NCBI GenBank assembly: GCA_026988115.1
Contig: JALSLV010000112.1
Span: 1-64,000 of the forward strand
Direction: 5' to 3'
DNA from: Lysobacterales bacterium
GTDB taxonomy: Bacteria > Pseudomonadota > Gammaproteobacteria > Xanthomonadales > Marinicellaceae
Length of the DNA stretch: 64,000 nucleotides
Shown: one piece after another, positions 2,396-18,542 of the stretch
Position numbering within the stretch: position 1 is the stretch's first letter
Layout: each line of letters begins with the position of its first letter
The notes under the pieces: model-generated
What the model was told of the DNA's origin: nothing
Databases searched by the model: none
Seen by the model: only the letters and a program-made list of their open reading frames with translations
Translations under genes and position numbers: made by a program

Positions 2396-4918
2396 ATGAC
2401 GGCATTACTTCACCAGACCTTTTCTTTTCTTGATTGGAATTTAGACATTTCAAAACATGAACTGTACTTGAATTATGAGATTGAAAGCATTGGTAAAGTG
2501 ACTGAAGTTCTTAGTTTTCCGCAATTTTCAATGACACATGTTAATAAAAAGCAAATCAACGCAGCCTGTGATTTAGTGCATTGGATGTGTGGCGTTAGTT
2601 ATTATAAATCAGGCCTTGCAAAAGAAATAATATTCAAATGTAAACAACCCTCAGAGCAGATGTTGAGTTTTATTAAGAAAACGTGGTTTCATGGTTTGGC
2701 TGAGTTGGTTTATGAGAACGGTTTAAAAGGGGTCAGTACCCTTAAATCAATAAACCCACCTACTAAAACCTTATTGTCAAAAGATTTAAGGGTACTGACC
2801 CCTTTTAAACTTGTTGCCCTAGGCGGTGGAAAAGATTCCTTAGTTACGATTGAGGAGCTTAAACTACACGGCAGTGAGATTAAATTATTTATGGTTGGAA
2901 ATTCAAGCCTAATTAAAAGTGTGGCTGAATTTATCGGTTTACCGTTAATTCAAGTCAAACGAAAAATAGATGATAAATTGATTGCTTATAATAAGGCAGG
3001 AGCCATAAATGGACACGTGCCTATTACTGCTATCAATTCTGCTATTGGTGTTTTGACGGCTTTGTTGTTTGATTGTTCAGAGGTGGTTTTTTCCAATGAA
3101 AAATCAGCCGATTCAGAGAACACCATTAATGCCGATGGGGATAAGGTCAATCATCAGTATTCTAAAAGTTATGAGTTTGAAAAGGATTTTTGTGCTATTA
3201 TTTTTAAGGAGATTACTCAAGATGTGCATTACTACTCACAACAAAGGCAGTTTTCAGAATTGGAAATTTTGCAAAAGTTTGCACAGTATCCGCAGTATTT
3301 TCCTGTATTTACTAGTTGTAACCGTAATTTTCATCTCGATGGTTCGCACAATAACAATTCCTTGTGGTGCTGTGATTGCCCTAAATGCCGATTTGTCTTT
3401 TTGGGACTGGCTCCATTTATAGAAAAATCTGAACTATTAAAAATATTTGGTCAAAACTTAATGGATGACGAAAGTCAAAAGCATGGATTTGCAGAATTGC
3501 TGGGTTATGAAGGCATTAAACCATTTGAATGCGTAGGTGAAATACACGAAAGCAGACAGGCATTTGATTCGATTAAAAACAAACGCGACTGGAACAATGA
3601 TGAGTTGGTGGTTTATTTTAAACAAAAACATTATTTAGCCCTGAGTCAATTACGAAATAAACAAGTTGCGATTTGGGGTTTTGGCGTTGAGGGCAGGGCA
3701 GTTGCCGAATATTTGCATAAAAACCAGGTGGGATTTACCGTTTTGTGCTCTAAAGGTGAAGAAGACAAAAGTTACTCCTGTGAAATAAAAGAAATTGATG
3801 TGGCATTACTTAATCAATTTGATATTATTGTTAAGTCACCTGGCATTAGCCCTTATTCTGATTTAGTGAAAAATTCCAAGGCACAATTTACCTCAGCAAC
3901 GGCATTATGGTTTGCCAACGAAAAAAACACATCGGTTATTGCCATAACAGGAACAAAAGGCAAAAGCACAAGCGTGAGTGTGTTGAGGCATGTTTTAGAA
4001 GCTTTGAATTATAACGTCAATTTGGTGGGTAATATTGGCACACCCTTGATTGCGGCTTCATCCGATTGCGACTATATTGTACTAGAGGCATCTAGTTTTC
4101 AAATTTATGATGGAGAAATTCAGGCAGATATTGCGTTAATTAATAATTTATACCCCGAGCATGTGGATTGGCATGAAGGAGCTGAAAATTATTTTAGTGA
4201 TAAAGTTAAGCTATTGGATTCGGCAACAATCAAAATTATTAATGCCAATAATAAAGAATTGGTTAAGCGAACACACTCCATGAACTGTGTGCTTTTTAAT
4301 GCAAAAAATGCTTTTCATGTCGAAGGCGAATCCTTGTTTTTACAGGACAGAGAAGTTTTGAAAATAAGTGAGATTCAATTAATTGGTCAACATAATTTAG
4401 AAAACATTGGAGCTGTGTTAACAATTTGTAAAGAGTTGAAACTAAATATTGACCGTTGCATTGACGCCATTAAAACTTTTCAACCCCTGCAGCATCGGTT
4501 GCAATATCTGGGGAAAATAGGTCAGCATTTTGCCATTAACGATAGCATAGCCACTACGCCAATTGCAACCTTGGCTGCTCTGCAAACACAAGAGTGTTCA
4601 ACAACGACATTATTTGTAGGCGGCTTTGATCGGGGTAATGATTGGTCTGATTTTGCTCAAAATTTGAACCAGTGTGCACCTAATTTATTATTGTTAACAG
4701 GACAGAGTGGTAAAATTATACATGACTATTTGCAACAAATAAATTCTCCAATTTTATTCCATTATTTTACTAAATTAGGTCAAGCCATTAAATTTGCAGT
4801 TGAAAATTCACCAAAAAATCATACACTGTTGTTATCACCGGGAGCTCCTAGCTTTGATGAGTTTGAAAATTATAAACAAAGAGGTCTTTATTTTGAAAAG
4901 GAACTACACAATATATAG
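2396..4918 (+). CDS. murL-murD2: Fused MurL-MurD2: muramoyl-Ala-Glu epimerase and L-Glu ligase
   Basis: An 840-residue fusion. Residues 1 to about 415 match MurL, the epimerase of UDP-MurNAc-L-Ala-L-Glu known from Xanthomonas: a PP-loop-like GGGKDS (143-148) and a Cys cluster at 325-331 after SCNRNFHLDGS. Residues about 420-840 are a MurD-type ligase: nucleotide-binding GFGVEGRAV (428-436), Walker A GTKGKST (519-525), NNLYPEHVDWH and NDSIATTP. In Xanthomonas MurD2 adds L-Glu and MurL then inverts it, replacing glutamate racemase plus the normal MurD. There the two are separate neighbouring genes; here they are one chain, epimerase first. Residues 109-138 are encoded by a 90-bp palindromic repeat just before the PP-loop. 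The gene overlaps the Sel1-like gene downstream by 26 bases. Confidence 0.85.
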   Translation: MTALLHQTFSFLDWNLDISKHELYLNYEIESIGKVTEVLSFPQFSMTHVNKKQINAACDLVHWMCGVSYYKSGLAKEIIFKCKQPSEQMLSFIKKTWFHGLAELVYENGLKGVSTLKSINPPTKTLLSKDLRVLTPFKLVALGGGKDSLVTIEELKLHGSEIKLFMVGNSSLIKSVAEFIGLPLIQVKRKIDDKLIAYNKAGAINGHVPITAINSAIGVLTALLFDCSEVVFSNEKSADSENTINADGDKVNHQYSKSYEFEKDFCAIIFKEITQDVHYYSQQRQFSELEILQKFAQYPQYFPVFTSCNRNFHLDGSHNNNSLWCCDCPKCRFVFLGLAPFIEKSELLKIFGQNLMDDESQKHGFAELLGYEGIKPFECVGEIHESRQAFDSIKNKRDWNNDELVVYFKQKHYLALSQLRNKQVAIWGFGVEGRAVAEYLHKNQVGFTVLCSKGEEDKSYSCEIKEIDVALLNQFDIIVKSPGISPYSDLVKNSKAQFTSATALWFANEKNTSVIAITGTKGKSTSVSVLRHVLEALNYNVNLVGNIGTPLIAASSDCDYIVLEASSFQIYDGEIQADIALINNLYPEHVDWHEGAENYFSDKVKLLDSATIKIINANNKELVKRTHSMNCVLFNAKNAFHVEGESLFLQDREVLKISEIQLIGQHNLENIGAVLTICKELKLNIDRCIDAIKTFQPLQHRLQYLGKIGQHFAINDSIATTPIATLAALQTQECSTTTLFVGGFDRGNDWSDFAQNLNQCAPNLLLLTGQSGKIIHDYLQQINSPILFHYFTKLGQAIKFAVENSPKNHTLLLSPGAPSFDEFENYKQRGLYFEKELHNI
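2721..2810. repeat. REP-like palindrome inserted in frame in murL
   Basis: 28 bases at 2721-2748 (beginning GTTTAAAAGGGGTCAGTACC) are the exact reverse complement of 2783-2810, with a 34-nt spacer. The total of 90 bp keeps the reading frame. A second copy of the GGGGTCAGTACCC core lies at 19957-20035. The motif resembles the palindromes associated with IS200-like REP transposases (recollection). Confidence 0.85.
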
Positions 4919-11542: not shown

Positions 11543-11652
11543 TTGGTTTATTCTCTATAAAAACAATTTGAGTTTTCAACTGGCTTTTAAAAGAATCAAG
11601 CCAATTGCAGTTAAGTTATGTTTGCATTATAAATTTTGGGTTTTATATGACC

Positions 11653-11666
11653 TTGATTTAGGTCAA
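11653..11666. promoter_or_regulatory. Possible FNR/ANR-type operator upstream of the porin
   Basis: TTGATTTAGGTCAA differs from the FNR consensus TTGATnnnnATCAA at one position. It overlaps a second palindrome, GACCT-n6-AGGTC. It lies between the divergent porin and arginine leader, closer to the latter. Confidence 0.35.
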
Positions 11667-11720
11667 TTTAGATAAATCACGTGTTATTACCAAAAAAAGA
11701 CTTGTTTTGAAAATAATTGA

Positions 11721-11748
11721 TTGTTAGACTTCACCTAACAATTAAATA
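11721..11748 (+). promoter_or_regulatory. Candidate promoter of the arginine operon leader
   Basis: TTGTTA (11721-11726) and TAAATA (11743-11748) are 16 bases apart. Transcription would begin at about 11755, next to the leader-peptide ATG, which has no Shine-Dalgarno sequence; the leader mRNA may therefore be leaderless. Confidence 0.35.
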
Positions 11749-11755
11749 GATAGAT

Positions 11756-11875
11756 ATGATAACAACACAACAACAATTTAATTCATCACTTTTCACAATC
11801 ACTAGTGAATGTGTATCTGTTGTTGTTCGACGCAACCGCCGACGTATAAATATGCCAGGTTGTGAGGTCTTGTGA
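11756..11875 (+). CDS. Arginine-rich leader peptide of the arg operon
   Basis: A 39-codon ORF too short for the ORF track: ATG at 11756, TGA at 11873. It contains VVV-R-R-N-R-R-R at residues 22-30, five Arg codons out of six (CGA CGC AAC CGC CGA CGT, 11828-11845). The peptide otherwise has no domain. It is followed directly by mutually exclusive RNA stems and a terminator before argF'. This is the layout of his/thr/ilv leader peptides, but with arginine as the sensed amino acid. A ribosome stalling for lack of charged Arg-tRNA would sit over RNA segment 1. No Shine-Dalgarno is visible; an AUG-initiated leaderless message is possible. Confidence 0.75.
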   Translation: MITTQQQFNSSLFTITSECVSVVVRRNRRRINMPGCEVL

Positions 11876-11934
11876 TTTAATTATTTAATTAAAACAAATA
11901 CTTTGAAAACCTGGTGTAAAAGCCAGGTTTTTTT
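11831..11934 (+). promoter_or_regulatory. Ribosome-stalling transcription attenuator for arginine genes
   Basis: Four RNA segments can be drawn. Segment 1, CGCAACC (11831-11837), lies inside the Arg codons. Segment 2, GGTTGTG (11858-11864), pairs with it. The overlapping CCAGGTT (11855-11861) instead pairs with segment 3, AACCTGG (11908-11914), as antiterminator. Segment 3 otherwise pairs with segment 4, CCAGGTT (11923-11929), forming the terminator with a T-run. Stalling at the Arg codons would mask segment 1, free segment 2 and prevent termination. All pairings are read directly from the sequence; the mechanism is by analogy with known attenuators. Confidence 0.75.
11906..11934 (+). terminator. 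Attenuator terminator before argF'
   Basis: AAACCTGG pairs with CCAGGTTT around an 8-nt loop, followed by an uninterrupted T-run to 11934. It is an intrinsic terminator 47 bases upstream of the first arginine gene. Confidence 0.85.
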
Positions 11935-11980
11935 GTTTCTGGCTTATGCACTTTAAAAGAACTTAAATCTGGAGCAAGAA

Positions 11981-12988
11981 ATGCACAAAAATTTTATTAC
12001 TACCGAAAATTGGTCAAAATCTGAACTAGAGGATTTGCTGACTGTTGCCGGTGACTTAAAAAACAACCCTTTTCATCAAAACTTGAAAAACAAATCCTTT
12101 GCTTTGTTATTTCTTAATCCCTCTATGCGTACACGTACTTCATTTGAGATAGGAATACAGCAACTTGGTGGAACAGCGGTAATTCTACAACCAGGGAAAG
12201 ATGCATGGGGTATTGAATTTAATAACAACGTGGTGATGGATGGTGATACAGAAGAGCATATTAAAGAAGTGGCAGCAGTACTATCAACTTACGTGGATGC
12301 TATTGCGGTTCGTGCTTTTCCAAAATTTATCTCTTGGGAAGACGATAAACAAGATAAAGTGATCCAAGCATTTAAAAAATATGCCAATGTGCCAATCATC
12401 AATATGGAAACGATAGTTCATCCCTGTCAGGAACTGGCATTGATGATGACGGTTAAAAAGCATTTAGGTGAAGTTAAAAATAAAAAGTTCCTAATGACAT
12501 GGACTTATCATCCTAAACCACTCAACACAGCTGTTGCCAACTCAGGTATTTCTATTTCTTCTAAGTTTGGTATGGATGTGACATTATTATGTCCAAACAA
12601 AAATTATATTTTGGATGAAAAATACATCGAACTGGCTAGAAAAAACTGTCAAGCCCAAGGAGCAACTTTTAGTATTAGCCATGATATTGAACAAGCCTAT
12701 GCCGATGCCGATTTTGTTTATGCTAAATCATGGGGAGCACTGCCTTTTTATGGTAATCCAGAAGAAGAATGGAAGCAAAGGCGTAAGTTTCAGCATTTTA
12801 TGATTGATGAACACAAAATGGCTATGACAAATAACGCTAAATTTTCACATTGTTTGCCCTTGCGTAGAAACATAAAAGCCACCGATGCAGTGATGGATGC
12901 CGATTATTGTGTCGCCATCGAAGAAGCCGAAAACAGATTACACGTACAAAAAGCCATGATGCTGGCATTATTTGGAGAAAAATTATGA
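11981..12988 (+). CDS. argF': N-acetylornithine carbamoyltransferase
   Basis: 335 residues. It transfers carbamoyl phosphate to N-acetyl-L-ornithine, giving N-acetylcitrulline, as in Xanthomonas. Carbamoyltransferase marks: SMRTRTS (48-54, carbamoyl phosphate), HPCQ (147-150) and HCLPLRRN (290-297). The HCLPLRRN form, with the following lysine (K299, probably equivalent to the carboxylated lysine of the Xanthomonas enzyme), and the longer central region with MDGDTEEHIKE separate it from ordinary ornithine carbamoyltransferases. The neighbouring acetylcitrulline deacetylase-like gene supports acetylated substrates. It is the first structural gene after the attenuator. The ATG follows GGAGC, and its end overlaps argG by 4 bases (ATGA). 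Confidence 0.9.
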   Translation: MHKNFITTENWSKSELEDLLTVAGDLKNNPFHQNLKNKSFALLFLNPSMRTRTSFEIGIQQLGGTAVILQPGKDAWGIEFNNNVVMDGDTEEHIKEVAAVLSTYVDAIAVRAFPKFISWEDDKQDKVIQAFKKYANVPIINMETIVHPCQELALMMTVKKHLGEVKNKKFLMTWTYHPKPLNTAVANSGISISSKFGMDVTLLCPNKNYILDEKYIELARKNCQAQGATFSISHDIEQAYADADFVYAKSWGALPFYGNPEEEWKQRRKFQHFMIDEHKMAMTNNAKFSHCLPLRRNIKATDAVMDADYCVAIEEAENRLHVQKAMMLALFGEKL

Positions 12989-14190
12989 AAACCCAAAACA
13001 ATAAAAAACTTGTTCTCGCCTTTTCAGGCGGATTAGACACCACCTACTGCTTGCATGACTTGGTCAAAAAAGGCTACGAAGTGCATTCGGTTTTTGCCAA
13101 TGCGGGTGGAATATCGAATGAAGAAATTGAATCAATTAAACAACGTGCTTTGCAATTAGGAGCAACAAAACACCACAGTTTTGATATAAAAAACGATGTC
13201 TGGAAGGAATTTGTTACACCATTGGTCTGGTCACATGCCCGCATGAACAATGAATATCCGCTACTATGTTCGGATCGCTACATGATTGTAAAAAAATGCT
13301 TACAGTTGTGCGATGACCTTGACACCAAACTATTTGCCCACGGCTGCACCGCCATGGGCAATGACCAATTTCGTTTTGACCAAACGGTTAAATCACTTGG
13401 GGATTATGAAATTATTGCACCGATTCGTGATTTGCAAGCCCATGTCAATTCGGTGCGAGATTATGAAATTGAACAACTAGCCAAAGCAGGCATAGAAGTC
13501 GCAGGGCAACACAAAGCCTATTCAATCAATGAAAATATGCTCGGTGTGACAATATCTGGAGGCAAGATTGACGAATTTGAACAACCCGATGACAGCTCTT
13601 ACTTATGGGTCAAACAAAGAAAAGACTGGCCACAAAAACCCTTGTCTTTAACTGTTGGTTTTGAACAAGGCGAAGCAATTAGTTTAAATGGTGAAAAACT
13701 AGATGGTGTCAGCATTATCGAAAAACTCAATAAAAAACTGGGGCAATACGGCATAGGCAGGCACATCTATACCGGCGATGTCAGTATCGGTTTAAAGGGG
13801 AGAATCGTCTTTGAATGCCCTGCCATTGATGGATTGTTAGCTGCTCATCAAACCTTGCAAGACACGGTTAATTCCAAATTTCAAAACCAATTTAACCACA
13901 TTATTGCTAATCGCTGGGCTGAGTTGGTTTACAACGGCTATTTCCACGAACCGCACAAAACCGACTTAGAAGCCTACCTCAAAAGCTCACAATCGCACGT
14001 AACAGGCACGGTAACATTGTACAGCGAAGGTGGTAATTTATTGGCAACAGCGATAGAGTCGGACTATATCGTGCAAGACAAAGATTCAGTTTACGCTCAA
14101 TCCTGTGCTTGGTCACCTGCCGATGCCGTTGGATTTATTAAGCTTGCTGGACAAGCCTCAACATTGGTTAATAAGGTCAGAAGAGGATAA
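12985..14190 (+). CDS. argG: Argininosuccinate synthase
   Basis: 401 residues from the ATG at 12985, which overlaps the argF' stop (ATGA). The longer ORF-track start reads through argF' in another frame. It joins citrulline and aspartate with ATP. The ATP-pyrophosphatase motif LAFSGGLDTTYCL is at residues 9-21, and CTAMGNDQFRFD, YSINENMLG and the C-terminal CAWSPADAVGFIKL region agree with the family. The enzyme acts after deacetylation of N-acetylcitrulline by the gene two places downstream. argH, the last step, is not in this window. Confidence 0.95.
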   Translation: MKTQNNKKLVLAFSGGLDTTYCLHDLVKKGYEVHSVFANAGGISNEEIESIKQRALQLGATKHHSFDIKNDVWKEFVTPLVWSHARMNNEYPLLCSDRYMIVKKCLQLCDDLDTKLFAHGCTAMGNDQFRFDQTVKSLGDYEIIAPIRDLQAHVNSVRDYEIEQLAKAGIEVAGQHKAYSINENMLGVTISGGKIDEFEQPDDSSYLWVKQRKDWPQKPLSLTVGFEQGEAISLNGEKLDGVSIIEKLNKKLGQYGIGRHIYTGDVSIGLKGRIVFECPAIDGLLAAHQTLQDTVNSKFQNQFNHIIANRWAELVYNGYFHEPHKTDLEAYLKSSQSHVTGTVTLYSEGGNLLATAIESDYIVQDKDSVYAQSCAWSPADAVGFIKLAGQASTLVNKVRRG

Positions 14191-14211: not shown

Positions 14212-15207
14212 ATGAAGAATACAAACCAAATAGAAATATACCAAAGCACCGATGGGCAAACACAAGTTGAATTAAATTTTAACCAAGAGTCCTTGTGGCT
14301 TTCCCAAAAACAAATGTCTGTATTGTTCGATAAAGACAGCGATACAATAGGCTTGCATTTAAAAAATATTTATAAGGAAAAAGAACTTATAAAAAATGCA
14401 ACTACCGAGGATTCCTCGGTAGTTCAACAAGAAGGAAATCGCAAGGTTAAACGTCAGATAAAACTCTATAACCTCGATGCAATTATTTCAGTTGGTTATC
14501 GTGTTAATTCGAAAAAAGGTACTCAGTTCCGTATTTGGGCAACTCAACGCTTAAAAGAAATTCTTACCCAAGGCTACTCCCTTAACCAACAACGCTTTAA
14601 ACAAAATTCCAAAGCATTGCAACAAGCATTAAAGCTCATAGAGAAAACGGCTAAATCACCAGAACTAACATTAGAAGCAGGCAGAGGTCTAACAGAAATA
14701 GTTACACGTTATACCCAAACGTTTTTATGGTTGCAACGCTATGATGAGGGATTGCTAGACGAACCAAGGGGAGAATCAGGTGGCAGTCTAATTCCGAGTA
14801 AAAAAGCCATGGAATTATTAAGTGAATTAAAAAATTCATTAATCAAACGCGGTGAAGCAACAGAATTATTTGCTCAACCTCGTGCTGAAGGTTTAGATGG
14901 AATATTTGGTAATCTAGAACAAACGGTATTTGGCGAGCCTGCCTACCCAACAATTGAAAGCAAAGCCGCTCATTTATTGTATTTTATCGTGAAAAACCAT
15001 CCTTTCTCTGATGGCAATAAACGTAGTGGTGCATTTTTATTTGTTGATTTTTTAAGTCGCAACAATCGGTTATTAAACTCATTAGGCGAGCCAATTATCA
15101 ACGATACAGGACTGGCAGCATTGACATTGCTTGTTGCTGAATCAGACCCAAAACAAAAAGAAACCCTAATTCGACTCATTATGCATATGCTAGGAAATCA
15201 ACCATGA
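14212..15207 (+). CDS. RhuM/Fic-DOC fusion protein within the arg operon
   Basis: 331 residues. The N-terminal half (about 10-125) is RhuM-like: LWLSQKQMSVLFDKDSDTIG, LYNLDAIISVGYRVNSKKGT and FRIWATQRLKEIL. The C-terminal half is a Fic/DOC domain with the active motif HPFSDGNKRSG (His263), so AMP- or phospho-transfer to a protein target is plausible. No antitoxin gene is adjacent. It sits between argG and argE' with ATGA overlap into argE', so it is locked into the operon although it has no metabolic role there. Codons 64-71 contain a perfect 10-bp hairpin (14401-14423). Related RhuM/Fic genes are usually accessory, so horizontal acquisition is likely. Confidence 0.85.
   Translation: MKNTNQIEIYQSTDGQTQVELNFNQESLWLSQKQMSVLFDKDSDTIGLHLKNIYKEKELIKNATTEDSSVVQQEGNRKVKRQIKLYNLDAIISVGYRVNSKKGTQFRIWATQRLKEILTQGYSLNQQRFKQNSKALQQALKLIEKTAKSPELTLEAGRGLTEIVTRYTQTFLWLQRYDEGLLDEPRGESGGSLIPSKKAMELLSELKNSLIKRGEATELFAQPRAEGLDGIFGNLEQTVFGEPAYPTIESKAAHLLYFIVKNHPFSDGNKRSGAFLFVDFLSRNNRLLNSLGEPIINDTGLAALTLLVAESDPKQKETLIRLIMHMLGNQP
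14401..14423. repeat. Perfect 10-bp hairpin inside rhuM-fic
   Basis: ACTACCGAGG and CCTCGGTAGT are exact reverse complements around a 3-nt ATT loop. The hairpin lies in the variable segment between the two parts of the RhuM domain. Confidence 0.7.
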
Positions 15208-16304
15208 AAAAAACAAACAAAACACTAAAAAGCATACTCAATAACTTAGATTTCCTCATTCAACAAGACACACAAAATCCGCCTCGCAAGATTTGCCAAG
15301 AGGATGAGTTGTATGTTCAACTGGAAAATCATTTCAAGCAATGTGGTTTTACTGTTGCAATAACCGACCTTGGCGATGGGCATGTGATATTTTATGCCAA
15401 AAAAGGCACGCCAAGCGTGTTATTTAATGTGCATTTAGATACCGTTCCTGTGACGGCAAGCACCATTGAGCAATGGCATTACGACCCTTTTAAGTTGACA
15501 ATTGTTGACGATAAGGCTTATGGTCGTGGCAGTTGTGACATCAAGGGCGCGGCCGCAATTCTTATGCTTTTGGCAGAATCAGCTGATGATATGGCGGTGG
15601 TTTTTACCTCAGATGAAGAAGGAGCCAATGGTTGTTGTGTACAGAGTTTTATCGATAACAACGACTTATCGCAATACCAACAAATCGTTATTGCCGAACC
15701 CACACAAAGCAAAGCGGTGGTTTCACACCGTGGCTATTTATCGACTTATATCGAGTTTATCGGTGTATGCGGGCACTCTTCTATGGCGATTGCTTTAGAA
15801 GAAAACGCTATACATAAAGCCAATAAATGGCTGTTTCAAGCTATATGTTATGCAGGAAGTTTCGTCAAAGAAGATAATCCAGCAGGCATTTGTTTTAATG
15901 TTGGTGTTATCAAAGGTGGCGAAAAAAATAATATGATAGCCGAAAAAGTCAATCTGGATTTTAGTGCACGCGTTCCAACAGGTGTTTCATCCAAGGAAAT
16001 TTTTGAAAACATGCAAGTCTTTGATAAAAAGGCTAAATTTAGAGCAGGAATGATGGCTCCACCCTTGCCTGCCGATGGTCAAAACGATAAAGCCAGTCGT
16101 GCGTTTTGCTCAAAACAAGCCATTGAAGTTGCTAACCCTGTTGATTTTTGGACCGAAGCCGCCCTTTTTTCACAAGCGGGTTTCCCTGCCATTGTCCTGG
16201 GCCCTGGTGACATCAAACAAGCCCACACCATTGATGAATGGGTTGAGATTTCTCAACTGGAAAAAATCTACAACATCTACCAAGGAATTATTCATGCAAG
16301 CTAA
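15204..16304 (+). CDS. argE': N-acetylcitrulline deacetylase (ArgE-like, M20)
   Basis: 366 residues. M20 metallopeptidase marks: VLFNVHLDTVPVTA (metal His/Asp), YGRGSCDIKGAAA, TSDEEGANG (catalytic Glu pair), the dimerisation-domain GHSSMA and a C-terminal segment ending HTIDEWVEISQL with the last metal His. In a pathway with acetylornithine carbamoyltransferase this enzyme removes acetate from N-acetylcitrulline to give citrulline for ArgG. The specificity is inferred from context, since sequence alone does not separate it from acetylornithine deacetylase. It starts at an ATGA overlap with rhuM-fic and overlaps argBA by 11 bases. Confidence 0.85.
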   Translation: MKKTNKTLKSILNNLDFLIQQDTQNPPRKICQEDELYVQLENHFKQCGFTVAITDLGDGHVIFYAKKGTPSVLFNVHLDTVPVTASTIEQWHYDPFKLTIVDDKAYGRGSCDIKGAAAILMLLAESADDMAVVFTSDEEGANGCCVQSFIDNNDLSQYQQIVIAEPTQSKAVVSHRGYLSTYIEFIGVCGHSSMAIALEENAIHKANKWLFQAICYAGSFVKEDNPAGICFNVGVIKGGEKNNMIAEKVNLDFSARVPTGVSSKEIFENMQVFDKKAKFRAGMMAPPLPADGQNDKASRAFCSKQAIEVANPVDFWTEAALFSQAGFPAIVLGPGDIKQAHTIDEWVEISQLEKIYNIYQGIIHAS

Positions 16305-17610
16305 ACAAAATTTAATCAAACAAGTGCTGTTACAACTCGGTCATTCCACCGAAGCACAGTATTATTTGGATCAATACAGCAACCACCAGCACGTTAAATT
16401 TGCTGTGGTCAAAGTCGGAGGCAATGTTATTGCCAAGCAACTTGAGGAGTTGGCACAATCCTTGTCATTAATCACACATTTGGGATTAATCCCTATCGTT
16501 TTGCACGGAGCTGGCACTCAAATTGATGCCGCAACCAGCAAACAAAACCTGCCTGTACAAAAACTGGATGGCTTGCGTGTTACCGATGATAATACCATCG
16601 CATTGATTCAACCTGTTATCAAAGATGTGCATCAAAAACTGCTGGATGCTTTGGCAGAACACGGCATAAAAACTAAGAGCATCTTCAACAATGTTTTTTC
16701 TTGTGATTATTTAGACAAAGAAAAATACGGGCATGTCGGGCAAATTAAACAGGTCAAACTGGATGAAATTAACCAAGCCATCAAACACAAACAAGTGCCT
16801 GTTTTGAGCTGTCTTGGCACCGATGATGCTGGTAATGTGCTCAATATCAATGCCGATATTGCCATTCGTCAACTGGTGTGGGAATCCAAACCAGCCAAAG
16901 TGATTTTCGTCACCCCAACTGGTGGCATGTTGGATGAGAATGAGCAATTGATTTCTGCCATTCAATTGCACAACCAATACGACAACCTTATGCAACAACC
17001 GTGGTTGCATTCAGGCATGAAATTGAAAATTCAACAAATTTACCAACTGCTCAAACCCATGCCACGCAAACTCAGCGTCTCCATAACCGCTGCCAGCGAA
17101 CTTGGCAAGGAACTGTTCACCCACAAAGGCAAAGGTACGTTTATTTGCATGGGAGAAAACATCAACCACCACCAAATCATCGGCTCAACAGTAAAGCTCA
17201 AACTTATTAGCTTGCTCGAAAACACCTTCGGTAAAAAATTAAAAGCTGATTTTTTAGATGAAATAAAACTCAAATCAATCTTTATATCCGAATCAGGACA
17301 AGCCGTTGCCTTAGTCACCGAAGGTCATAATGGCATAGCCTATTTGAACAAATTTGCCGTCACACCACAAGCCCAAGGGCAGGGATTAGGCAAAGCCATT
17401 TGGCAACACATGTTGTCGGTCTATCCACAGTTGTATTGGCGTTCTCGCAGTAACAATAAAATCAACGCATGGTATTACAAGCAAGCCGATTGCAGTTACA
17501 AAAAAGACAACTGGATTGTGTTTACCACGGGCATGACAATTGCAGCAGCCTTAAGGTGTTTACAAGTTGGTGCTGATTATGCCGATAGCTGGCAGGAGAA
17601 AGCATCATGA
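16294..17610 (+). CDS. argBA: Bifunctional N-acetylglutamate kinase/synthase
   Basis: 438 residues from the ATG at 16294, inside the end of argE'. The ORF-track start at 16075 reads argE' in another frame. The N-terminal amino-acid kinase domain (about 30-285) shows VKVGGNVI, LHGAGTQID, DGLRVT and LNINADIA. The C-terminal part (about 300-438) is a GNAT-fold N-acetyltransferase domain, with LNKFAVTPQAQGQGLGKAIW for acetyl-CoA binding. This NAGS/K arrangement is known from Xanthomonas and Maricaulis. It carries out the first two steps: acetylation of glutamate and its phosphorylation. Arginine feedback on such enzymes is established knowledge; no specific residue was examined here. Confidence 0.9.
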   Translation: MQAKQNLIKQVLLQLGHSTEAQYYLDQYSNHQHVKFAVVKVGGNVIAKQLEELAQSLSLITHLGLIPIVLHGAGTQIDAATSKQNLPVQKLDGLRVTDDNTIALIQPVIKDVHQKLLDALAEHGIKTKSIFNNVFSCDYLDKEKYGHVGQIKQVKLDEINQAIKHKQVPVLSCLGTDDAGNVLNINADIAIRQLVWESKPAKVIFVTPTGGMLDENEQLISAIQLHNQYDNLMQQPWLHSGMKLKIQQIYQLLKPMPRKLSVSITAASELGKELFTHKGKGTFICMGENINHHQIIGSTVKLKLISLLENTFGKKLKADFLDEIKLKSIFISESGQAVALVTEGHNGIAYLNKFAVTPQAQGQGLGKAIWQHMLSVYPQLYWRSRSNNKINAWYYKQADCSYKKDNWIVFTTGMTIAAALRCLQVGADYADSWQEKAS

Positions 17611-18542
17611 TAAAAGTCGCTTTAGTTGGAGCCAGAGGTTATGTTGGGTTTGAATTAATAAAACTTATCGACAATCACCCACAAACACAATTGCTTGCCG
17701 CTTATTCGCGTGAATATAACGGTAAAAAAGTCTCTGAGATAGTCACAGGTTTTACTGAAAAAGATTTGTGTTATTGTGCCGATGAACTTGAAGGCTTAGC
17801 CGAAAAAGATTTAGATGTCATATTTCTCGCCTTACCAAACGATATTGCGGCTAAAAACCACGATTTATGGCTCAAAATCAGCAAAAAGTGCGTCATTATC
17901 GACTTAAGTTCAGATTTTAGATTTGATGATACATGGACTTATGGACAACCCGAAACCCGCCAAAAGCACATCATGGGCAAAAAACTTATTACCAATCCTG
18001 GCTGTTATGCCACCGCTTCGCAACTTGGCATATTACCTATCCTTGAGCAACTTGATGGCACACCGCAAATATTTGGAGTTTCAGGCTATTCAGGAGCGGG
18101 CAGCAAACCCAGCGACAAAAACAACCCAAAATTACTCAAAGACAACCTCATGGCTTATAAACTGGTTGACCATATCCACGAAAACGAAGTCAGTCGCGTG
18201 TTAAATCATCCAGTCAACCTCATGCCACACGTCGCCGAATTTTTCAGAGGCATACACCTGACGATTTCACTTAACTTAAAACAAGAAAAAACAGCATCCC
18301 AAATAACACAAATTTACCAAGAATTTTATAACAATTTTGAACTCATAAAAGTCACAAAACAAATCCCCGAAGTCACCCAAGTGCAAAACACTCACAATGT
18401 CCTCATCGGCGGCTTTAGCACCAAAGGCAAACACCTAGTCCTCTGTGTTTGTATCGACAACCTACTCAAAGGCGCCGCCACCCAAGCGATACAAAACATG
18501 AACTTAGCATTGAGATTGGAGATGAATTTGGGGATTGTTTAA
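17607..18542 (+). CDS. argC: N-acetyl-gamma-glutamyl-phosphate reductase
   Basis: 311 residues. It reduces N-acetylglutamyl phosphate with NADPH. The Rossmann start VALVGARGYVGFELIKLI is at residues 3-20, LALPNDIAAK and the active-site PGCYATASQLG follow, then GVSGYSGAGSKPS and HVAEFFRGIHLT. It overlaps argBA by 4 bases (ATGA) and is the last recognisable gene of the arginine operon. argH and argD must be elsewhere. Confidence 0.93.
   Translation: MIKVALVGARGYVGFELIKLIDNHPQTQLLAAYSREYNGKKVSEIVTGFTEKDLCYCADELEGLAEKDLDVIFLALPNDIAAKNHDLWLKISKKCVIIDLSSDFRFDDTWTYGQPETRQKHIMGKKLITNPGCYATASQLGILPILEQLDGTPQIFGVSGYSGAGSKPSDKNNPKLLKDNLMAYKLVDHIHENEVSRVLNHPVNLMPHVAEFFRGIHLTISLNLKQEKTASQITQIYQEFYNNFELIKVTKQIPEVTQVQNTHNVLIGGFSTKGKHLVLCVCIDNLLKGAATQAIQNMNLALRLEMNLGIV

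What the first reader, a model, noticed from the sequence alone, without database searches (positions are those of the whole stretch)
11756..11934. Arginine-sensing leader-peptide attenuator ahead of the arg operon
A 39-codon ORF contains five Arg codons out of six. It overlaps segment 1 of a set of mutually exclusive stems: 1 with 2, 2 with 3 as antiterminator, and 3 with 4 as terminator with a T-run. This is the classical his/thr/ilv layout, but for arginine. Arginine genes in gammaproteobacteria are usually controlled by the ArgR repressor, and I do not know of a described Arg leader peptide of this kind. The pairing partners are seen directly; novelty is my inference.
Basis: partly seen in the sequence, partly recalled or inferred. 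Interest (0 to 1): 0.88.

Follow-up and report, generated by a model that had tools for sequence, protein, structure and literature searches.

The report
Arginine-sensing attenuator replaces arginine repressor
Ahead of the arginine-making genes lies a tiny arginine-rich reading frame and an RNA switch that probably turn the genes on when arginine runs short; the same device is found at most such loci examined in a bacterial order that has largely lost the usual arginine repressor.

Summary
Window 11756-11875 encodes a 39-codon leader with five Arg codons in six. An intrinsic terminator follows (11905-11934); its 5' arm can instead pair with the leader end (11851-11861 with 11908-11918). Next comes argF' of an arginine operon. 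The device is widespread: in the order (probably Lysobacterales), 122 of 135 argF' loci examined have a terminator plus an Arg-rich leader. Own antiterminator pairs beat swapped ones (0 of 2000 swaps as good; 5 of 2000 within families; no signal within family f8). ArgR is absent from this genome and found in 6 of 298 order genomes, all in family f11, where no leader was seen. Outside the order, 9 of 9 argF' genomes keep ArgR and show no terminator upstream of argF'. Ribosome-mediated attenuation seems to have replaced the repressor. The mechanism is the classical his/trp kind; the amino acid and operon are new as far as my searches reach. Four families share MTSRARR in the leader (67 of 67), more than codon sensing alone requires. 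No expression data were available.

The parts
11702..11730 (+). inferred promoter: TTGTTT, 17 nt, TAGACT
   Evidence: CTTG/TTG and TGTTAGACTT or TGTTACATT-like motifs line up upstream of the leader in the alignment of 18 family loci, least clearly in L025; the consensus scanner did not list it. Inference.
11756..11875 (+). leader ORF, 39 codons, MITTQQQFNSSLFTITSECVSVVVRRNRRRINMPGCEVL
   Evidence: Arg-rich leaders at the same place in 18 of 18 family loci with readable upstream DNA
11828..11845 (+). regulatory Arg codons CGA CGC AAC CGC CGA CGT
   Evidence: sequence; shuffle test
11831..11837 (+). segment 1 (CGCAACC), pairs with GGTTGTG 11858-11864
   Evidence: fold of 11822-11868, not above shuffles; f1 own versus swapped 17 of 2000
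11851..11864 (+). segment 2: 11851-11861 pairs with segment 3 (antiterminator), 11858-11864 with segment 1; inside the last codons of the leader
11908..11918 (+). segment 3 as used in the antiterminator (AACCTGGTGTA)
11905..11934 (+). intrinsic terminator: stem 11905-11915 / 11922-11932 (segments 3 and 4) and T-run
11981..12988 (+). argF', N-acetylornithine carbamoyltransferase, first gene of the operon
   Evidence: NF003384, 527 bits, cut-off 288
12985..14190 (+). argG, argininosuccinate synthase
   Evidence: TIGR00032, 285 bits, cut-off 268.2
14212..15207 (+). RhuM-Fic fusion gene inside the operon; not part of the switch
   Evidence: PF13310 and PF02661 over cut-off
15204..16304 (+). argE-like acetylornithine deacetylase
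   Evidence: NF006439, 344.5 bits, just under its cut-off of 345
16288..17610 (+). argB/argA fusion (N-acetylglutamate kinase-synthase type; the synthase part is inferred)
   Evidence: NF003387 acetylglutamate kinase, 486.6 bits, cut-off 426
17607..18542 (+). argC
   Evidence: TIGR01850, 290 bits, cut-off 233.6

Best explanation
A ribosome-mediated transcription attenuator that senses charged arginine tRNA and controls the argF' operon. With arginine plentiful, the ribosome runs through the Arg codons to the stop codon at the end of the leader and covers segment 2; segments 3 and 4 then form the terminator and transcription stops before argF'. With arginine short, the ribosome stalls on the CGN run, segment 2 stays free and pairs with segment 3, the terminator cannot form, and the operon is transcribed. 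The parts, their conservation and the covarying 2:3 pairing are shown; translation, stalling, termination and the arginine response are inferred from the classical his/trp/leu attenuators. In this order the device stands in place of the lost ArgR repressor.
For: 122 of 135 argF' loci, from ten families, have terminator plus Arg-rich leader. Family f1: 18 of 18 loci exceed shuffles for Arg density at p<=0.05. Seg2:seg3 match in 7 of 7 positions (G-U allowed) in 46 of 72 loci, against 1.5 expected from mononucleotide shuffles of the upstream DNA. Own versus swapped seg2:terminator duplexes: 0 of 2000 swaps as good overall, 5 of 2000 within families, 0 of 2000 within f1. In the window's genus all three segments change together (CCAGG/CCTGG/CCAGG versus CCGGG/CCCGG/CCGGG in L014 and L017), and in genus g3 the antiterminator is rewired to pair the leader end CTCTTTGG with the terminator loop. 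Arg reaches 3 in 6 codons in all 122 leaders, which the selection rule itself demands; the next amino acid, Ala, does so in 67. ArgR absent; complementary distribution.
Against: No expression, ribosome-profiling or termination data. In the GC-rich families f12, f2 and f3, Arg density alone is above shuffles at 0 of 18 loci, and the two other frames of the same stretches reach 3 Arg in 6 codons in 51 and 53 of 122. The rewired antiterminator of genus g3 is weak against shuffles: in the seven g3 loci L018-L024, 6 to 26 of 200 shuffled leaders pair as well. Swapped pairs do as well as own ones for 2:3 within f8 (1459 of 2000) and for 1:2 in f2/f3/f4/f12 (1204 of 2000). 13 of 135 argF' loci lack the device, nine of them in f9, although no f9 genome was among the six with ArgR.
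Confidence: 0.9

Rival explanations
1. A nascent-chain sensor: the leader peptide itself (for example MTSRARR in four families) arrests the ribosome in the exit tunnel in response to arginine or its lack, with the Arg codons only part of the signal.
For: MTSRARR is present in 67 of 67 leaders counted in f2, f3, f4 and f12, while its codons vary at synonymous positions (pS 0.325 over 52 distinct sequences).
Against: In f1, f5, f7 and f8 the residues around the Arg run differ freely (RRNRRR, RRLRR, RRRRR), which fits codon sensing. Nothing points to it for the window's own leader.
Confidence: 0.07
2. The terminator only trims expression constitutively and the Arg-rich ORF is an incidental short gene or a consequence of GC-rich sequence.
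For: In GC-rich families f12, f2 and f3 Arg density alone is not above shuffles (0 of 18 loci).
Against: The window's family is AT-rich here and 18 of 18 f1 loci exceed shuffles; the antiterminator partner sits at the leader end and covaries; the peptide is conserved across four families.
Confidence: 0.02
3. Control is by another DNA-binding arginine regulator that replaced ArgR, with the leader giving minor tuning.
For: Not excluded: only the PF01316 ArgR family was sought.
Against: It does not explain the conserved leader, antiterminator and terminator.
Confidence: 0.05

Closest known systems
Leader-peptide attenuators of his, trp, thr, leu, ilv and phe operons
   Same: Short ORF with a run of codons for the operon's product, overlapping a 1:2 / 2:3 / 3:4 set of exclusive stems ending in an intrinsic terminator (layout recalled; of PMC1183508 the listing with the start of the abstract was seen, and a find for arginine terms gave none).
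   Different: Codons are arginine, operon is arginine biosynthesis; no Rfam leader family matches.
Salmonella speF leader orf34 (PMC6386406, abstract and outline seen)
   Same: Short ORF whose consecutive Arg codons sense arginine through ribosome pausing and alternative RNA structures.
   Different: Controls ornithine decarboxylase; works through Rho, RNase G and translation, not through an intrinsic terminator before an arginine biosynthetic operon.
Staphylococcus aureus rbfL (PMC13009471, passages seen)
   Same: Leader ORF that senses arginine limitation through Arg codons.
   Different: Two Arg codons (AGA, AGG); the paused ribosome blocks the ribosome binding site of a biofilm regulator, so control is translational.
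carAB leader of Pseudomonas (PMC4997734, passages seen)
   Same: A terminator ahead of a gene needed for arginine, with attenuation proposed.
   Different: Attenuation is ascribed to pyrimidines, the gene is also under ArgR, and the authors report no start codon for a small peptide in strain DC3000.
ArgR repressor regulon of Gammaproteobacteria (PMC5343134, passages seen)
   Same: Controls the same biosynthetic genes by arginine.
   Different: DNA-binding repressor; PF01316 not found in this genome nor in 292 of 298 sampled genomes of the order.

Membership tests
Ribosome-mediated transcription attenuator (leader-peptide type) | Short ORF with a run of codons for the end product of the downstream operon | tested here: met
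   Five Arg in six codons ahead of the arg operon; 122 of 135 loci in the order
Ribosome-mediated transcription attenuator (leader-peptide type) | Intrinsic terminator between leader ORF and first gene | tested here: met
   11905-11934, z -4.1; 123 of 135 loci
Ribosome-mediated transcription attenuator (leader-peptide type) | Antiterminator pairing exclusive with the terminator, with its 5' strand in the leader end | tested here: met
   Fold z -4.4; own versus swapped 0 of 2000 overall and in f1, 5 of 2000 within families, no signal within f8; weak against shuffles in genus g3
Ribosome-mediated transcription attenuator (leader-peptide type) | Protector stem 1:2 involving the regulatory codons | tested here: inconclusive
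   Forms in the fold but z -0.3; own versus swapped 17 of 2000 in f1, 1204 of 2000 in f2/f3/f4/f12
Ribosome-mediated transcription attenuator (leader-peptide type) | Leader ORF is translated | tested here: inconclusive
   Indirect: MTSRARR kept in 67 of 67 leaders of four families while synonymous positions vary; no ribosome data
Ribosome-mediated transcription attenuator (leader-peptide type) | Readthrough rises when the amino acid is scarce | not testable with these tools
   needs a reporter or RNA-seq
Rfam amino-acid leader families and T-box | Match to a covariance model at its gathering score | tested here: not met
   0 gathering matches in the window; at E<=10 in 11640-12000 no amino-acid leader or T-box among 11 weak hits
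ArgR regulon | ArgR (PF01316) encoded in the genome | tested here: not met
   0 matches in G000; the control rings in 9 of 14 genomes

The most novel reading that the evidence does not exclude
Across the order the arginine repressor was replaced by an RNA attenuator, and in four families the leader has become an arrest peptide: the invariant MTSRARR works through the nascent chain (or as a free peptide in trans), so that arginine is sensed by both codon and peptide.
Probability: 0.22. Interest if true: 0.78.

Novelty: new variant of a known kind. Interest (0 to 1): 0.64.

Why it matters
Arginine is the textbook case of control by a repressor in Gammaproteobacteria (recalled). Here most of an order appears to have lost that repressor and put a leader-peptide attenuator in its place, a clear, testable case of one regulatory mechanism replacing another for a whole pathway. 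It would also add arginine to the amino acids whose biosynthetic operons are run by leader-peptide attenuation, and predicts how arginine genes are controlled in the order.

Tried and rejected
ArgR control: rejected, no ArgR in G000. Known Rfam leader or T-box: no match. A second copy of the leader in the own genome: the leader peptide query found only itself at E<=1. A peptide search through the class with one f12-type leader found 1 of 274 genomes and missed a genome of the order that has the leader (G044, whose leader is in L140), so it says nothing about other orders. Whether the leader travels with argF': no, in 9 of 9 argF' genomes outside the order no terminator was found upstream and ArgR is present. 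The consensus promoter scan did not find the promoter I infer. Upstream of the argG of G001 (L156) I saw no Arg-rich leader next to the gene, by eye only; the sequence looks alphaproteobacterial (resemblance recalled).

Rows dropped: L028 (contig ends inside the region), L026 (gene fragment at a contig edge), L105, L106 and L113 (gene fragments) are not in the 135. L053 had no seg3 core and is missing from the 72. One search stopped with an error part-way; redid the table on 73 loci with a rule that the hairpin start lies within 260 nt of the end of the stretch read, but without the per-locus shuffles. One search listed only part of its 277 matches, best first, and I drew 100 loci from that list, so the sample leans towards sequences like the window; one search added 26 chosen genomes, of whose 27 loci 24 were used.

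Literature: (open-licence PMC papers only). I saw listings with the start of abstracts, and some lists were capped (20 of 81 papers, 12 of 79, 12 of 13). None of the listed papers was recognisably about a leader-peptide attenuator of an arginine biosynthetic operon. PMC8632094 and PMC2965389 were seen by passages only and showed none; PMC1262725 (passages) reports no RNA element for arginine operons in Actinobacteria and cites T-boxes for arginine elsewhere. A comparative attenuator survey of proteobacteria that I recall (Vitreschak and colleagues, 2004) was not seen.

Full report
What is there. The window lies in a genome of 3.5 million bases in 121 contigs. Of seven named relatives by argF', three (89 to 93% identical) are titled Lysobacterales bacterium, two uncultured Alcanivoracaceae, one Kangiella sp. 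and one Wenzhouxiangella sp.; I take the order to be Lysobacterales, which is an inference from these titles. At 11756-11875 is a 39-codon ORF, MITTQQQFNSSLFTITSECVSVVVRRNRRRINMPGCEVL. After 29 nt comes an 11-pair terminator hairpin at 11905-11932 with a T-run to 11934, and then argF' at 11981. The genes that follow are argF' (NF003384), argG, a RhuM-Fic fusion, an argE-like deacetylase, argB/argA and argC.

The pairings. Segment 2 (11851-11861, in the last codons of the leader) pairs over 11 positions with 11908-11918; that stretch folds at -20.8 kcal/mol, z -4.4, 0 of 200 shuffles as stable. The terminator alone is -15.0, z -4.1, 0 of 200. The 1:2 stem forms at -10.2 but 67 of 200 shuffles do as well. 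The full leader folds at -47.5, z -3.55, 1 of 200 shuffles as stable. The stop codon at 11873-11875 would put a terminating ribosome over segment 2, while a ribosome stalled early in the Arg run leaves it free (inference from footprint size, recalled).

Relatives. A family search found argF' in 19 of 33 genomes. All 18 of these with readable upstream DNA have an Arg-rich leader and a terminator, and a promoter-like motif lines up ahead of them. In the order, argF' was matched in 277 of 298 genomes, a number that includes five weak f11 matches of 38 to 41% identity. I read 141 loci: 135 argF' loci and six f11 loci. 122 of 135 have a terminator plus an ORF with at least three Arg in six codons; 123 have the terminator. 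By family: f1 18 of 18, f2 24 of 26, f3 3 of 3, f4 6 of 7, f5 3 of 3, f6 0 of 1, f7 2 of 2, f8 26 of 26, f9 5 of 14, f10 1 of 1, f12 34 of 34; f11 0 of 6.

Is it more than chance? The Arg criterion picks the most Arg-rich ORF, so it needs a null. Against 200 dinucleotide shuffles per locus (six-codon windows), 18 of 18 f1 loci, 3 of 3 in f5, 2 of 2 in f7, 18 of 26 in f8 and 4 of 6 in f9 pass p<=0.05; 0 of 12 in f12, 0 of 5 in f2 and 0 of 1 in f3 do. The total over 73 loci is 275 against 80.9 expected. The two other frames of the chosen stretches reach three Arg in six codons in 51 and 53 of 122 loci. In the GC-rich families the case therefore rests on conservation. The counted leaders of f2, f3, f4 and f12 number 67, and 67 of 67 contain MTSRARR; its codons vary at synonymous positions (pS 0.325 over 52 distinct sequences). 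The nonsynonymous rate of 0 within the motif is so by construction, since the sequences were picked by it, and the ORF choice preferred ORFs holding it; what counts is that none of the 67 lacked it. The last Arg codon of the motif is CGA in 64 of 67.

Covariation. Seg2 matches seg3 in 7 of 7 positions (G-U allowed) in 46 of 72 loci, against 1.5 expected from mononucleotide shuffles. Own pairs beat pairs swapped among the 122 loci: 0 of 2000 swaps as good overall, 5 of 2000 within families, 0 of 2000 in f1; within f8 there is no signal (1459 of 2000). An earlier version on 73 loci gave 0 of 2000 and, within families, 1 of 2000. For 1:2 the result is 2 of 2000 overall, 161 of 2000 within families, 17 of 2000 in f1 and 1204 of 2000 in f2/f3/f4/f12. 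In the window's genus the CCAGG/CCTGG/CCAGG triple is replaced as a set by CCGGG/CCCGG/CCGGG in L014 and L017. In genus g3 the antiterminator uses a different stretch, CTCTTTGG at the leader end (ATCTTTGG in L025) against the terminator loop; there matching to the usual core fails, and in L018-L024 6 to 26 of 200 shuffled leaders pair as well, so taken one by one these are not strong.

The repressor. ArgR (PF01316) is absent from G000 and found in 6 of 298 order genomes, the six f11 genomes seen, where the matched gene is only 36 to 41% identical to this argF' and no terminator was found upstream. Outside the order, a class sample of 369 genomes gave 14 with argF', five of them in the order. 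Of the other nine, 9 of 9 have ArgR and 0 of 9 have a terminator in the stretch upstream; by eye, argF' there follows closely on other coding sequence. So in the genomes checked for both, leader and ArgR were not seen together, and 13 argF' loci of the order have neither. Two f1 genomes with the leader (G023, G029) were outside the 298 and were not checked for ArgR. In family f1, 13 of 33 genomes lack argF' and have only weak argG hits (at most 32.7 bits), so they look like arginine auxotrophs.

How it works. The best reading is a classical ribosome-mediated attenuator with arginine as the signal. Shown: parts, conservation, 2:3 covariation, distribution. Inferred: translation, stalling on uncharged Arg tRNA, termination control. 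The spacing is fairly uniform (stop to hairpin median 29 nt, quartiles 25 and 32; last Arg to stop median 8 codons, quartiles 8 and 9, range 1 to 16), as a coupled mechanism would need.

Known or new. No Rfam family matches. Ten literature searches listed no leader attenuator of an arginine biosynthetic operon; the library holds open-licence papers only, some lists were capped, and I saw listings, abstracts and passages, so this is not proof of absence. Closest are speF orf34 (PMC6386406, abstract and outline) and rbfL (PMC13009471, passages), which sense arginine by Arg codons but act on other genes by other means. I therefore call it a new variant of a known kind. What remains odd is the invariance of M, T, S and A in MTSRARR, which codon sensing does not require.

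Noticed in passing
window 14212-15207; L002 8257-9255: A RhuM-Fic fusion gene sits inside the arginine operon between argG and the argE-like gene (Pfam); a clearly similar ORF is at the same place in L002, a 91% relative by argF' (by eye).
   Followed up: partly
window 2396-4918: An 840-residue ORF joins a MurL-like half (NF041275, 419.5 bits, under its cut-off of 700) to a MurD half (TIGR01087, 298.2 bits, over its cut-off): an apparent MurL-MurD fusion (Pfam).
   Followed up: partly
family f1 genomes: 13 of 33 genomes lack argF' and have only weak argG hits: apparent arginine auxotrophs, leader and operon gone together.
   Followed up: partly
f9 loci L058, L059, L061, L065, L066, L088, L151, L152, L153: argF' without the attenuator, and no f9 genome was among the six with ArgR: control unknown.
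   Followed up: no
G001, L156: A genome labelled as the same family has a strong argG of a different type whose surroundings look alphaproteobacterial (recalled resemblance); the label may be wrong.
   Followed up: no
leaders of 84 of 122 loci: The leader often contains RRP, the Arg run being followed by proline, in otherwise different leaders.
   Followed up: no
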